Translations under genes and position numbers: made by a program
Assembly: GCA_021292105.1 (NCBI GenBank)
Contig: CM037869.1
Location: 24,318,050 to 24,382,049, forward strand
Source of the DNA: Anadara kagoshimensis
Taxonomy: Eukaryota > Mollusca > Bivalvia > Arcoida > Arcidae
Reading direction: 5' to 3'
Length of the DNA: 64,000 nt
Part shown: positions 17,101 through 23,100 of the stretch, piece by piece
Layout of the letters: the number at the start of each line of letters is the position of its first letter
Position numbering within the stretch: position 1 is the first letter of the stretch
Notes under the pieces: generated by a model
The model's database searches: none
Told to the model about the DNA's origin: nothing
Seen by the model: only the letters and a program-made list of their open reading frames with translations

Positions 17101-20100
17101 TGAAAACTATTAACTTTTTGTATAGGCATGTATTTTAGAATATTGTTGGTACTGGCACAGTGGTCATTTTGATATATGAATAAAGAGCATGAGTTTAAAT
17201 GTCAAGATCACAGATACAAACAAGTACCGAGATGATTATTTATCTCAAAAACTATAAACTTTTTGTATAGGGATGTATATTAGAATATTGGCCTAATTAT
17301 CATTTTGATATTTGAATGAAGCTCATGGGTTCAAAGGTCACAGGTGAGCGTTAAGGCCCATGGGCCTCTTGTATTTTTCTTTAAACCCTCTTTTTGATCC
17401 AAACCATATAGCCTCAGTTTTATCAAAATTAGCTCTCAGACCAGAACAGTCGGCGAAATCTTCAATTAGGAACAAAGCTCTATTTAAAGAATGTTCATTA
17501 TCGTCTAATGTAAGCGATGTGTCGTCAGCGTACTGACTAATCAGATACTCTGATCCATTCAAAGTTACACCTTTTATATTGGGATCATTTTTAACAGCAG
17601 CACTCAACAATTCTACACATAGTATAAAAAGATAGGGAGATAGAGGATCACCCTGCCGCACACCACGTTCAACAGAGAAAAAGTTTGAAATGTAACCATT
17701 GTTTTGAACAAGACTGACTGCCCCATTATAAAACGTTTCAAACCAGCATATGATGGAGTTTCCAAAACCGAAGAAACGTAATGTTTGTTTGATAAAAGAC
17801 CATTCAATCGAGTCAAATGCTTTTTCAAAGTCTAAAAGCAACAAAATCCCTGATATTTTTTCATTTTCACTTTTTTCAAGTATGTCCATAGTTAAACGGG
17901 AACATTCGCCAATATATCTATTCTTTAAAAATCCAGTTTGGGTTTCACTAATCAAGTCATCCAAAACTGTTTTTATTCTATTTGCAATTGAAGCAGAAGC
18001 TATTTTATAATCTACATTAAGTAGGGTAATAGGTCGCCAATTTTTAAAGTAAAATTTTGATTTTCCTTCCTTTGGTAGACAAGTAATAATACCTTGTTTC
18101 TGGGTAATAGATAAGGAACCTTTTTCATAAGCACAGTTTAATGCTTTTATTAAATATTCATGAATATCCGTCCAAAAGAACTTATAGAACTCTACAGTAA
18201 AACCGTCAAGGCCCGGAGATTTACCATTTTTCATATTTTTAGCTCACCTGAGCCATAGGCTCAGATGAGCTATTGCAATCTATCACCGTCCGTCGTGCGT
18301 CGTCCGTCGTGCGTCGTGCGTCGTCCGTCGTCCGTCGTGTGTAAACTTTACATTTCAATCTTCTCCTCCAAAACTACTGGGCCATATTTGATGAAACTTG
18401 GTGATTATCATGCCTGGGTAGCAGCCTTGCAAAATTGTGTTCGGGGTTTGGCCACGCCCAACAAGATGGCCGCTGTTACTAAAAATAGCAAAAAGACAAA
18501 AAAATCTTCTTCTCTGAAACCAAAAGGTGCAGGCTAATTTTGATTGAATATTTGGATTCAGCATACCTGGATACATTAAAATTGTGTTTTTCATGAAAAT
18601 TAGACGAAAAATAGGTTACGCGTTTTTTGCGTGAAATTATGTAATTTTTAAAATGAGACATTTATTGTTATAACTTCATAACGGCTGAAGATAATTGTAA
18701 GGAGTTTTCACTGTTGATCTTGACTTGCAATTTTCTTCCAATTGATGTCAAGGTCGAAGGTCAAGGTCATGTCCCAGTTTTTGACCTTTGATAAAAAATG
18801 CTATTTTTTTAACATTTCTTGTGATAATGGTGTAGGATTTTCAGTTATTTGAAGGTATTGACATGACGATCATTTTGATACATAGATCAGGGTCATGGGT
18901 TCAAAGGTCAAGGTCACAAATGTCCAAAAATACCAAAATAGTTAATTATCTGCAAAACTATGAATTTTTTGTATAGGCATGTATATCAGAATATTGTAGG
19001 TAATGGCACAAAGGTCATTTTGATATATGAATAAAGGTCATGGGTTCAAAGGTCAAGGTCACAGATGTAAACAAGTACTGAAATGGTTAATTATCTCAAA
19101 AACTATAAACTTTTTGTATAGGCATGTATATTGGAATATTGTAGGTATTGGCCTAACGATCATTTTGATATATGAATGAAGGTCATAGGTTCAAAGGTCA
19201 AGGTCATAGACGCGAATGATTACTTAAATGGTTAATTATCTCAAAAACTATAAACTTTTTGTATAGGCATGTATTTTGGAATATTGTAGGTATTGGCATA
19301 ATGATCATTTTGATATATGAATGAAGGTCATAGGTTCAAAGGTCAAGGTCATAGAATTGAACGAATACTTAAATGGTTAATTATCTCAAAAACTATAAAC
19401 TTTTTGTATAGGCATGTATATTGGAATATTGTAGGCATTTGCACAACAATCATTTTGATATATGAATGAAGGTCATAGGTTCAAAGGTCAAGGTCATAGA
19501 TGCAAATGAATACTTAAATGATTAATTATCTCAAAAACTATAAAATCTTTGTATAGGCATGTATATTGGAATATTGTAGGTATTGGCCTAATATATTTAT
19601 TAATGCACATTTTAATATACAGATGTTTTAGCTGTTTATAAATAATATATTGTAGCTAGACTTTAAATATGTTATATATAGCATACTTATTTAATAATTA
19701 TTATAATTAATTTGCAAAAATACTTGCATATTATTGCCCCTTACTGCTGAAAATTTTGATATTCTCTTTTATTAATGTCATTGGCCATTGAACCTCTGCA
19801 TAAGATATGTACTCTTCCTCAGGTGAGCGTTAAGGCCCATGGGCCTCTTGTTGTTTATAGACATAAAGATCAAAGAAACTAAAGAAAAAATATGTTAACT
19901 TAATCTTGTTATTTTCTGTTAATTTGTCATTTTCTTTTATTTCAGGAACTGTTGAATTTTTGGTAGATTCCAGAAAAAACTTTTACTTTCTTGAGATGAA
20001 TACTAGGCTACAAGTAGAACATCCAATCACAGAGTGTATAACAGGCATAGATATTGTACATCAAATGATCAGAGCTGCTAAAGGTGAGTATTTCTGGTTG

Positions 20101-23100
20101 GTCAAGTAGAACATCCAATCACAGACTCTATAACAGGCATAGATATTGTATATCAAATGATCAGAGCTGCTAAAGGTGAGTATTTCTGATTGGTCAAGTA
20201 GAACATCCAATCACAGAGTGTATAACAGGCATAGATATTGTATATCAAATGATCAGAGCTGCTAAAGGTGAGTATTTCTGATTAGTCAAGTAGAACATCC
20301 AATCACAGAGTGTATAACAGGCATAGATATTGTATATCAAATGATCAGAGCTGCTAAAGGTGAGTATTTCTGATTGGTCAAGTAGAGCATCCAATCACAG
20401 AGTGTAGAACAGGCATAGAAATTGTACATCAAATGATCAGAGCTGCTAAAGGTGAGTATTTCTGATTGGTCAAGTAGAACATCCAATCACTTGAATGTTG
20501 AATATTGAAATTGTGCATAAGACCCATTTGGTTTTTAGAAGGAAATTCATGAGCTACCTATTATTTTACTTTGATTACAAAATGATTGATATTTCAGAGA
20601 ATTGACCATAAATTTTTATAAACCTATATAATTTAATTCAGACAAAAATTCTATATTTATTATTTAGAAGATAAAAATAAAACTAATAAATCAACACAAT
20701 GGTATTTGTGTTATTTTTATTATTTATTATACAGTATATACAAAATATCATGCATACATGTATATGTCTGTTTAAAATATTGATTTTTCTCGGGATAAGT
20801 AGGTTTACAAGTGAAAAAAACTATATCCTCACCCCTGCTGTACATAAAGTTTCTTGTTGTAAGATTTCTCTGTTCTTCATGGATACTCATTACAAATTTT
20901 GATAATATTGTATTACAGGTCACAAGCTGCTTCATTCCCAGGCAGATATACCAATAGATGGTTGGGCAATAGAGTGTCGTGTGTATGCTGAGGTAAGAAC
21001 TTAGCTTAACAATGTTGTTTTAGGCCCAGTCAGATTTTTTCATTTATATCAAAGCAGTCAGTTTAAAGATGATGGAGGAAATTGGAGTGTCTGAAGAAAA
21101 CTACCAACATTCAGCACACTAGAATTTGTCACAGGTGGGATTCGAACCTACATGTAGGTGGTGACAGGCGATGTGATAATTAAGCAGACATTTTAGACCA
21201 CAGGTCTCCAAGGCCACCTGTATGCTGAAATTAATAGTTTTACAATCATTCATGAATATAAAGGTTCAGTCAGATTTGGTGTTATAAAGGGATTTGCTGA
21301 TAAATGAAGGGAGACTTGTAAAGAAAACAAAAGCATAAAAATACACTGTGAAACTTCAAATTACTGATGCGATGAGCTAGACTGCAACGTTATCAAGAGG
21401 CTTTATATTGAGGTTTTATTATACCCCTGCTAATGAAGTTTAGGATGGTATATAGGAATCACCCTGTCTGTCCATCTGGTTGTCCATACCAATATGGTGC
21501 CCACTCCATATCTTCCATGTCTGTGGATGGATTTTGATCAAACTTGACACACATGTAAACCAACATGGGACGATAGGTCACATACCAAATGTGTGCATAA
21601 GTCAAAGGTCAGGAGGTCAATGTTTGGCTCTCAAGAGACAATTTTAGTTATACATGTAGTAGTTTTGAAAATTTTGACATCACTGAATTTGAATCATTGT
21701 ATCAACTGTTGATGTCAAATATATGTAATGCACCTTCTAAAAGCATTTTATACTGTATTTTAGGATCCATATAAACACTTTGGAATGCCATCTATTGGGC
21801 GTTTGTACAAGTACATTGAACCAAAACATGTACCCAAGGTAAGCAAGAATAATTTTACTTTTTTATACCAAATTACACTTAGTGGCAATAAGCTAGAAAT
21901 TGCAGTGTGAGGTTCCAACGTCCGTTGGTGTTACTTTGGGTGGTCTCCGACTGATTGCAGATGGTTCCACATGATACAAGTGAGGTGGTAGTGTTTCATC
22001 AGGGAACCTTATCCCAAAAGATTGACCAGACCTCACTCCAAATTTAATAAATCACTGCAAACATATGTTAGTGTCTTAATGACTCTCTACTTCATCACAC
22101 TCCCACCACAATGTATGATGTGATACTCTCGGGTTTTTATTGATAGGTTTGTGCCTGTCCTTCTTTCTGTTCAGCAGTTCCCTGTTGGTTTCCAGAGGTT
22201 AACTTGAGAACAGATCAGAGGCTTTTTCTTCAAACTCTGTCTGTCCAAAAGTAACTGTTTGTTTAGCATATTTCAGAGAAAGCAAAAAGCCAAATATCTG
22301 TTAGAGATATGATGCATGGATTAGACTGAAATCAGGATATTTAGTTATGACTCGGCTCATGTAAATAAATGAATTACTGATTTGTATCAGTCTCATTGAA
22401 AATCTATAACATATTTGCTAAACAAACAGTAATGTTTTATATGTTTTAAAAATAATTTTAAAGAAATACAACTTTTGTTTGCCCTGGCAACTACAGTCGT
22501 CAAAAACCAAGTATCAGGTTTAACTTCTCTGGTTTTACACAGTGTAGATGGCAGCTTGTCAAAATGTGAAAGTTGTACATGGATGTTAATGTCAATTTAA
22601 AACTTAAGTCAAGCATGTTGATAAAAAGATCATGGCAAGACATCTAATTCCTAATTTAGGTTAGAATGAAGGGGAGTGGTGTAATGCTCTTTTACATCCC
22701 AGTCGAAGATTCTTTCACTTACATTGAGGTTGTCAGTTCAAGGATGGTGGAGAACTGGTGGTTTCTTTTGCCTAAGATTTCTACTAATTTATGCACTGTA
22801 GATTCACGTTGGGAAAAATCACTAAAATTTCCTAATTTGACCACTAAAATTCCCAAAACAACAGTTATACACAAATAAAGCATTTACATTGTACTGGTAC
22901 ATACTGTCCTATCCTATGAAAATTTTAGCTCTTGCAAGCTTGTCATAATATAGTTTGCTATATATTTCAGTCACATGTACATGTACTTCAATTTTTGAAT
23001 TTATGAAAATAGTGTAAATTTTCCAACTCTAAAAGGCAGAAGGTAGTTTTTGAAAATCACTGTTGACAATTTTGAAGTTAGATTACATATGTATTACTTT

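What the first reader, a model, noticed from the sequence alone, without database searches (positions are those of the whole stretch)
20011..20490. Five extra splice donors: tandem copies of the 3' half of the PCCA active-site exon
A 92-bp unit made of the last 73 bp of exon 11 and the first 19 bp of intron 11 is repeated about five times, with the donor AAAG|gtgagt kept in the copies. A splicing machine that picks a later donor would add 92 nt per step, and the first added codons reach a stop. This could tune PCCA output through nonsense-mediated decay or act as donor decoys. Copies are very similar, so the expansion is young.
Basis: partly seen in the sequence, partly recalled or inferred. 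Interest (0 to 1): 0.75.

Follow-up and report, generated by a model that had tools for sequence, protein, structure and literature searches.

The report
Tandem copies of a splice donor
In this animal's PCCA gene the end of one exon, with its splice signal, has been copied head to tail five times (four in a second copy of the locus), and other exons of the genome look the same, so the genome offers a natural test of how a cell picks one of several identical splice sites.

Summary
Five 92-bp units (20011-20470) plus 20 bp repeat the last 73 bp of a PCCA exon and 19 bp of its intron, and the five donors AAAG|gtgagt are identical. That is four extra donors, not five. Each later donor would add a stop codon. 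The array is not an artefact: a second copy of the locus 1.2 Mb away, probably the other haplotype left in the assembly, has its own 4-unit array with four intact donors. One unit type is shared, so the array predates the split of the two copies (4.4% substitutions); 'young' is not supported. Donor conservation is no evidence of function (P=0.30). Units 2 and later carry 8 amino-acid-changing and 1 silent exonic change; unit 1's exonic part is identical in both copies. Most likely a minisatellite hit an exon edge. Exon definition should select the first donor and leave the others as silent decoys. NMD tuning is unsupported. New here: PCCA is one of a class. Of 18 other three-donor arrays I examined, 14 appear to sit on a coding-exon donor (7 with protein homology, one of them weak). 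Triples of AAGGTGAGT are about 7-fold over-represented per 9-mer against one control, the reversed 9-mer. No RNA data were available.

The parts
19946..20083 (+). PCCA coding exon (138 nt) that ends at the first donor
   Evidence: tblastn with bacterial PCCA, PDB match of this and the next exon to PCCA, ttatttcag acceptor and AAAG|GTGAGT donor; 0 of 138 differences in the second copy
20011..20102 (+). unit 1: the functional copy, 73 exonic + 19 intronic bases
20103..20194 (+). unit 2 (donor after 20175)
20195..20286 (+). unit 3 (donor after 20267)
20287..20378 (+). unit 4 (donor after 20359)
20379..20470 (+). unit 5 (donor after 20451); shares two derived bases with unit 3 of the second copy
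20471..20490 (+). partial unit, 20 bp, then unique intron
20107..20109 (+). in-frame TAG reached by every donor after the first
20084..20918 (+). intron from the first donor (835 nt; 467 nt from the last donor)
20919..20992 (+). next PCCA exon, shared acceptor gtattacag|GTCACAAG
8025..32921 (+). PCCA coding part found in the window: 17 exon pieces, each with AG before and GT after; not a complete gene model (no mitochondrial leader or last residues sought; the 5143-nt gap 25562-30704 probably hides further exons)

Best explanation
A 92-bp stretch that spans the 5' splice site of a PCCA exon was duplicated in tandem and became a small minisatellite with variable unit number (5 and 4 in the two copies of the locus). 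Shown: the anatomy, the second array, the in-frame stop, loss of amino-acid constraint in units 2 and later. Inferred: the exon is recognised by exon definition, the spliceosome pairs the upstream acceptor with the nearest of the identical donors (20084), and the later donors are silent, removed with the intron. Occasional use of a later donor would give an NMD substrate. The array is one member of a class of donor-spanning tandem arrays that this genome carries at a number of exons and apparently tolerates for the same reason.
For: Exact anatomy. The genome search found the unit at high identity in two places, two copies of PCCA, both with arrays (the tool warns that a missing match does not show rarity). 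Over 17 exon pieces (1679 nt) the two copies differ by 25 silent and 1 amino-acid-changing codon (a first count with exon edges set by eye gave 23 and 4). So correct splicing at donor 1 must work where no array-free PCCA copy was found. Unit 1's exonic part is identical in both copies, while the 9 exonic variable sites in the other units are 8 amino-acid-changing and 1 silent. The gaps between neighbouring exon pieces are 302 to 5143 nt (16 gaps), the exon-definition range of PMC9225289, where identical donors gave exclusive upstream use. Donors 3-5 would make exons of 322-506 nt. Background: the 8 arrays of period 60 or more that I took (this one among them) cover 11% of the window, and 0.24 of them are expected to span an annotated donor. 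Same architecture, by my reading, at 14 of 18 other arrays examined, with homology for a ZIP transporter, a GTPase and a nuclear-receptor zinc finger, Raptor, IleRS, talin and, weakly, myosin light chain (E 0.002).
Against: No RNA evidence of any kind. The upstream rule comes from human minigenes and human events; in the same paper all human alternative donors pooled without strength matching show about 60% downstream preference. The 835-nt intron is short by vertebrate standards. The enrichment over the reversed 9-mer (see rivals) suggests more than random placement, which the 'accident' reading does not explain. Single-strand folding shows all nine donors mostly paired and does not single out the first (P unpaired 0.005-0.098; first donors 0.007 and 0.032).
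Confidence: 0.75

Rival explanations
1. NMD rheostat: a fraction of transcripts uses a later donor, gains the stop and is degraded, so unit number or a splicing factor sets PCCA output.
For: All four later donors are identical to the first and every later donor gives a stop 66-342 nt before the new exon end; in the second copy 78-262 nt. The donor is among the strongest of 16 listed for the gene by U1 duplex energy (-10.2 kcal/mol, second of 16).
Against: Donor invariance is expected by chance (P=0.30); unit number differs between the copies; exon-definition precedent favours donor 1; array-bearing exons occur in unrelated genes, which fits a neutral repeat better than a PCCA-specific switch; in one case (L142) the 87-bp units stay in frame without a stop.
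Confidence: 0.1
2. 5' splice sites are preferred birthplaces of tandem arrays in this genome (a mutational bias at exon-intron edges), and the PCCA array is one product.
For: Triples of AAGGTGAGT at 70-100 bp spacing: 104 matches against 22 for the reversed pattern, although the single 9-mer is rarer than its reverse (4538 against 7040): 2.3% against 0.31%. 10 of 14 further arrays from that list appear exon-anchored. An acceptor-like 9-mer gave 116 against 37, with 3 of 12 arrays examined apparently exon-anchored.
Against: Matches within an array overlap and are not independent; the list shows about 18 clusters and stops short of the full 104. The query is itself the donor consensus, so true donors are over-represented by design, and I could not compare with the share of all AAGGTGAGT that are true donors. 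The reversed 9-mer is one control only, and genome-wide single-9-mer counts for the acceptor pattern were not obtained. The wider MAGGTRAGT pattern shows a smaller excess (1513 against 637), for which no single-9-mer count was made.
Confidence: 0.3
3. Copies act as cryptic exons or recursive splice points (donor of one unit joined to an acceptor-like AG in a later unit).
For: AAAG|GT is a juxtaposed AG|GT, and CACAG|AG in most units would keep the frame (read from the sequence). One site in the second copy scores 3.2, just above the second-weakest real acceptor (3.0).
Against: Acceptor scores inside the array are -15.9 to +1.7 in the window and at most 3.2 in the second copy, against 3.0-13.7 for 14 of 15 real acceptors left out in turn (the remaining one -0.5); the AAAG|GT points score -4.9 or -4.1 and CACAG -2.5 to -2.7. 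The PWM rests on only 15 sites.
Confidence: 0.03
4. Assembly artefact.
For: The assembly seems to hold two haplotypes of some segments, which shows it is imperfect.
Against: Two separately placed copies hold arrays that differ in number (5, 4) and sequence (11 variable columns of 92).
Confidence: 0.02

Closest known systems
Minisatellite providing multiple splice donors in an interferon-induced human transcript (Turri, Cuin and Porter 1995, NAR 23:1854; only the title seen, in reference lists; paper not held; gene name 6-16/G1P3/IFI6 and repeat details recalled)
   Same: Tandem repeat that contains a 5' splice site at an exon end, so several donors lie in a row.
   Different: There the repeat is a short unit (12 nt, recalled) and several donors are used; here the unit carries 73 nt of coding exon, later donors give a stop, and use is unknown. 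Here it is one of a number of such arrays in the genome.
Duplicated identical 5' splice sites in exon-definition minigenes (Carranza, Shenasa and Hertel 2022, PMC9225289; abstract, Results part 1 of 2 and search passages read)
   Same: Identical donors compete for one exon between introns above 250 nt.
   Different: Artificial, two donors, human cells; here natural, 4-5 donors with their exonic context copied too.
[quoted passage not shown]
   Same: A tandem duplication crosses an exon-intron boundary and copies its splice signals.
   Different: [quoted passage not shown] here the donor side, more than two copies, and no new intron is evident.

Membership tests
Donor-providing minisatellite (IFI6 type) | Tandem array whose unit contains the exon's own 5' splice site | tested here: met
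Donor-providing minisatellite (IFI6 type) | Unit number varies | tested here: met
   5 and 4 units in the two copies of the locus; whether they are alleles is inferred
Donor-providing minisatellite (IFI6 type) | More than one donor is used in transcripts | not testable with these tools
   no RNA data
AS-NMD poison switch | Alternative product carries a premature stop more than 50-55 nt before a junction (rule recalled) | tested here: met
   66-342 nt
AS-NMD poison switch | Conserved alternative site under selection | tested here: inconclusive
   9 of 9 donors intact but P=0.30 by chance; no other animal genome available
AS-NMD poison switch | Alternative site is used and regulated | not testable with these tools
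   no RNA data
Mutually exclusive or duplicated exons | Each copy has its own acceptor and donor | tested here: not met
   the unit holds only the exon's 3' part; best acceptor-like score inside the array is 1.7 in the window and 3.2 at one site of the second copy, against 3.0-13.7 for 14 of 15 real acceptors
Recursive splice (ratchet) points | Strong polypyrimidine acceptor directly before the donor | tested here: not met
   score -4.9 (one unit -4.1) at AAAG|GT
Intron gain by tandem duplication | A new intron spliced between copies | not testable with these tools
   no RNA; unlikely

The most novel reading that the evidence does not exclude
In this genome 5' splice sites are hot spots for the birth of tandem arrays. 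Dozens to hundreds of coding exons (PCCA, a ZIP transporter, Raptor, talin, IleRS, a nuclear receptor and others) end in rows of 3 to 20 or more near-identical consensus donors, and the spliceosome ignores all but the first. That would be a genome-wide natural experiment on donor choice and an unreported source of allelic splicing variation.
Probability: 0.35. Interest if true: 0.75.

Novelty: new variant of a known kind. Interest (0 to 1): 0.55.

Why it matters
How a cell chooses between identical 5' splice sites has been studied with engineered two-donor genes. Here one animal appears to carry a number of natural exons followed by 3 to 20 or more equal donors, with copy number differing between two copies of one locus. 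Ordinary RNA-seq from this species would test the exon-definition proximity rule across many genes at once, measure how much mis-splicing a genome tolerates, and show whether donor-spanning minisatellites create hidden NMD load. It also warns annotators: such arrays may produce false alternative exons.

Tried and rejected
Donor conservation as evidence of function: rejected, 0 of 9 donor columns vary but so would 30% of random placements of the 11 variable columns.

RNA structure choosing the donor: all nine donors are mostly paired in local folding (P unpaired 0.005-0.098) and the first is not favoured.

Recursive splicing and cryptic in-frame micro-exons: acceptor scores mostly far below real sites, one site in the second copy borderline.

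A fixed breakpoint 17-21 nt into the intron: 5 of 15 arrays measured have it (PCCA, L131, L132, L133, L143), but I chose the bin after seeing the data, and in several diverged arrays (L128, L130, L138, L141, L144) the script's period or edge is unreliable; not used.

Local estimate of 9-mer frequency: useless, because the 9 local AAGGTGAGT equal the nine PCCA array donors; the whole-genome count was used instead.

First exon table and codon count had exon edges a few bases off in most exons; redone with true AG/GT edges.

Naming the species: no call names it; that it is a bivalve is my impression from repeat types (recalled).

Paper searches: the 10 allowed were used. None of the listings shown reports donor-spanning tandem arrays in a mollusc or as a genome-wide class; one search showed 10 of 37 papers, and the library lacks most subscription papers.
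Full report
WHAT IS THERE. The window carries a PCCA gene on the + strand: bacterial PCCA (L001, Paracoccus) aligns exon by exon from 8025 to about 32936, 17 exon pieces have AG before and GT after, and the exon in question plus the next match mitochondrial PCCA chains best among solved structures (E about 1e-34). From 20011 the sequence repeats with period 92: five full units and 20 bases of a sixth. A unit is the last 73 bases of the exon plus the first 19 of the intron. The five donors AAAG|GTGAGT are identical; differences among units are 1 to 6 of 92. 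In the window the string [AC]AGGT[AG]AGT occurs five times on + and never on -, and the five are these donors.

A SECOND COPY. The window's own assembly is held (1.115 Gb, 36 contigs, contig C13). The array and exon match two places at high identity: the window, and C13:25,523,505, 1.19 Mb downstream (95%). A third, weak match (75% over 86 bp, C18) looks like a different gene; I saw no array in the 2500 bases of it that I read. The window is collinear with the second place along its length, with 4.4% substitutions over 37,349 aligned bases and many insertions or deletions. Its array has four units and the same partial unit, one base shorter. The pairing extends: 24.38 Mb with 25.55 (95%), 25.10 with 23.90 (best partner, 92% over 1152 bases), 24.70 with 25.84 (95%). 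A neighbouring segment pairs at another distance (23.60 with 23.27, 93%). Of three arbitrary places elsewhere, one had a single partner 1.18 Mb away on the same contig (91%), one matched only a cluster 175 kb away, its own place not being listed, and one had none. I infer that the assembly keeps both haplotypes of some segments and that the two PCCA copies are alleles; a tandem duplication is not excluded.

AGE AND CONSTRAINT. Unit 5 of the window and unit 3 of the second copy share two derived bases; units 2-4 of the window share one base found in no other unit. So the array existed before the two copies split, and at least one has changed its number since. Within-array differences (1-6 of 92) are about as large as the divergence of the two copies, so 'young' is not supported. 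In unit 1 the exonic part is identical in both copies. The nine variable exonic columns of the other units are eight amino-acid-changing and one silent, as expected if only unit 1 is translated. Between the two copies the 17 exon pieces (1679 nt) show 25 silent changes and 1 amino-acid change. Donors are intact in 9 of 9 units, but with 11 variable columns of 92 the chance of missing all nine donor columns is 0.30.

HOW IT PROBABLY WORKS. The donors tie in strength, so position should decide. PMC9225289 (abstract, Results part 1 of 2 and search passages read) reports that with introns over 250 nt and near-equal donors the upstream donor is favoured, exclusively so in five minigenes with 365-nt introns; with short introns the downstream donor is preferred; and pooled human events without strength matching favour the downstream donor in about 60%. 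Here the flanking introns are 4524 and 835 nt, and about 350 and 768 nt in the second copy. The prediction is use of 20084, with the rest silent. Later donors would make exons of 230, 322, 414 and 506 nt with a stop 66-342 nt before the end, hence NMD substrates by the usual rule (recalled). No RNA was available, so this step is inference. It is strengthened by the fact that neither of the two PCCA copies found lacks the array.

NOT UNIQUE. I asked the assembly for three consensus donors in a row. MAGGTRAGT at 70-100 spacing gave 1513 overlapping matches against 637 for the reversed pattern. The listing, which shows only the first places, held four distinct arrays, on C1; I read all four, and by my reading each begins at the donor of a coding exon: a ZIP transporter (L128, Pfam 3.4e-9), a GTPase (L130, 9.9e-7), L129 without a hit in Pfam or PDB and L131, not searched. 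AAGGTGAGT triples gave 104 against 22, though the single 9-mer is rarer than its reverse (4538 against 7040), a 7-fold difference per 9-mer. That listing (not complete) holds about 18 clusters, two of them PCCA. I fetched the 5' flanks of 14, leaving out two that look like second copies of fetched ones. Ten appear exon-anchored (L132, L133, L135, L136, L138, L140, L141, L142, L143, L144), three do not (L134, L137, L145) and one is undecided (L139). Homology supports nuclear receptor zf-C4 (L132, 2.3e-8), Raptor (L136, 1.8e-7), IleRS (L138, 4.2e-6), talin (L143, 5.9e-12) and, weakly, myosin light chain (L141, 0.002). The other five rest on an open frame, an AG acceptor and the donor, judged by eye; four of them had no Pfam match better than 0.09 and L140 was not searched. 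L144 and L135 are the least certain, since the array register of L144 was not resolved. Altogether 14 of 18 examined appear to be exon donors, seven with homology.

ACCEPTOR SIDE. TTTTTCAGG triples gave 116 against 37 (listing not complete). I took 12 clusters and left out eight lone matches and one probable second copy. At their 3' ends three of the 12 seem to run into an exon (L148, L151, L152), one with homology (L152, aminomethyltransferase, 8.2e-39), the other two without a significant Pfam hit; the remaining nine do not or are unclear. PCCA has one such case itself: the start of the exon at 25459 is duplicated upstream at 25337-25399 (90%), and a shorter remnant is in the second copy.

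LIMITS. Overlapping matches inflate counts. A donor-shaped query finds donors by design. One reversed 9-mer is a thin control. I did not have gene models, RNA or other animals. From the window alone, the accident reading needs no special cause: the 8 arrays of period 60 or more that I counted, this one included, cover 11% of it, and 0.24 are expected to span an annotated donor. Whether donors are array hot spots is open.

VERDICT. The NMD-tuning interpretation is unproven and unlikely. The wider class is the interesting part.

Noticed in passing
25337-25399 and 25459-25561: Older partial duplication of another PCCA exon, on its acceptor side (63 nt, 90%); the outer copy has AAAAG instead of AACAG and runs into a CA repeat. 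A shorter remnant is in the second copy of the locus.
   Followed up: partly
C13:24.3 Mb and 25.5 Mb; C17:15.0 and 16.2 Mb: Same-strand pairs of segments at 91-96% identity on one contig, as expected if both haplotypes were left in the assembly.
   Followed up: partly
37084-44133: About 7 kb present in the window and absent from the second copy, with inverted ends (CCCAAGAGCTAGTGGGG / CCCCACTAGCTCTTGGG) and an 890-aa open frame with a DUF6589 match below the curated cut-off: looks like a recent mobile element.
   Followed up: no
15666-19848: Block of 4.2 kb with 145-bp tandem repeats and a reverse transcriptase frame, absent from this place in the second copy.
   Followed up: no
3134-6168: 94-bp unit repeated 32 times upstream of the first PCCA exon found; only a short stretch corresponds in the second copy.
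   Followed up: no
L142 (C12:25,874,760-25,875,510): Donor array with 87-bp units that stay in frame and open as far as the fetched stretch goes; later donors would add 29 residues each instead of a stop.
   Followed up: no
49810-50033: 26-bp tandem repeat whose unit contains TGTAAGT, a donor-like motif, with no gene recognised there.
   Followed up: no
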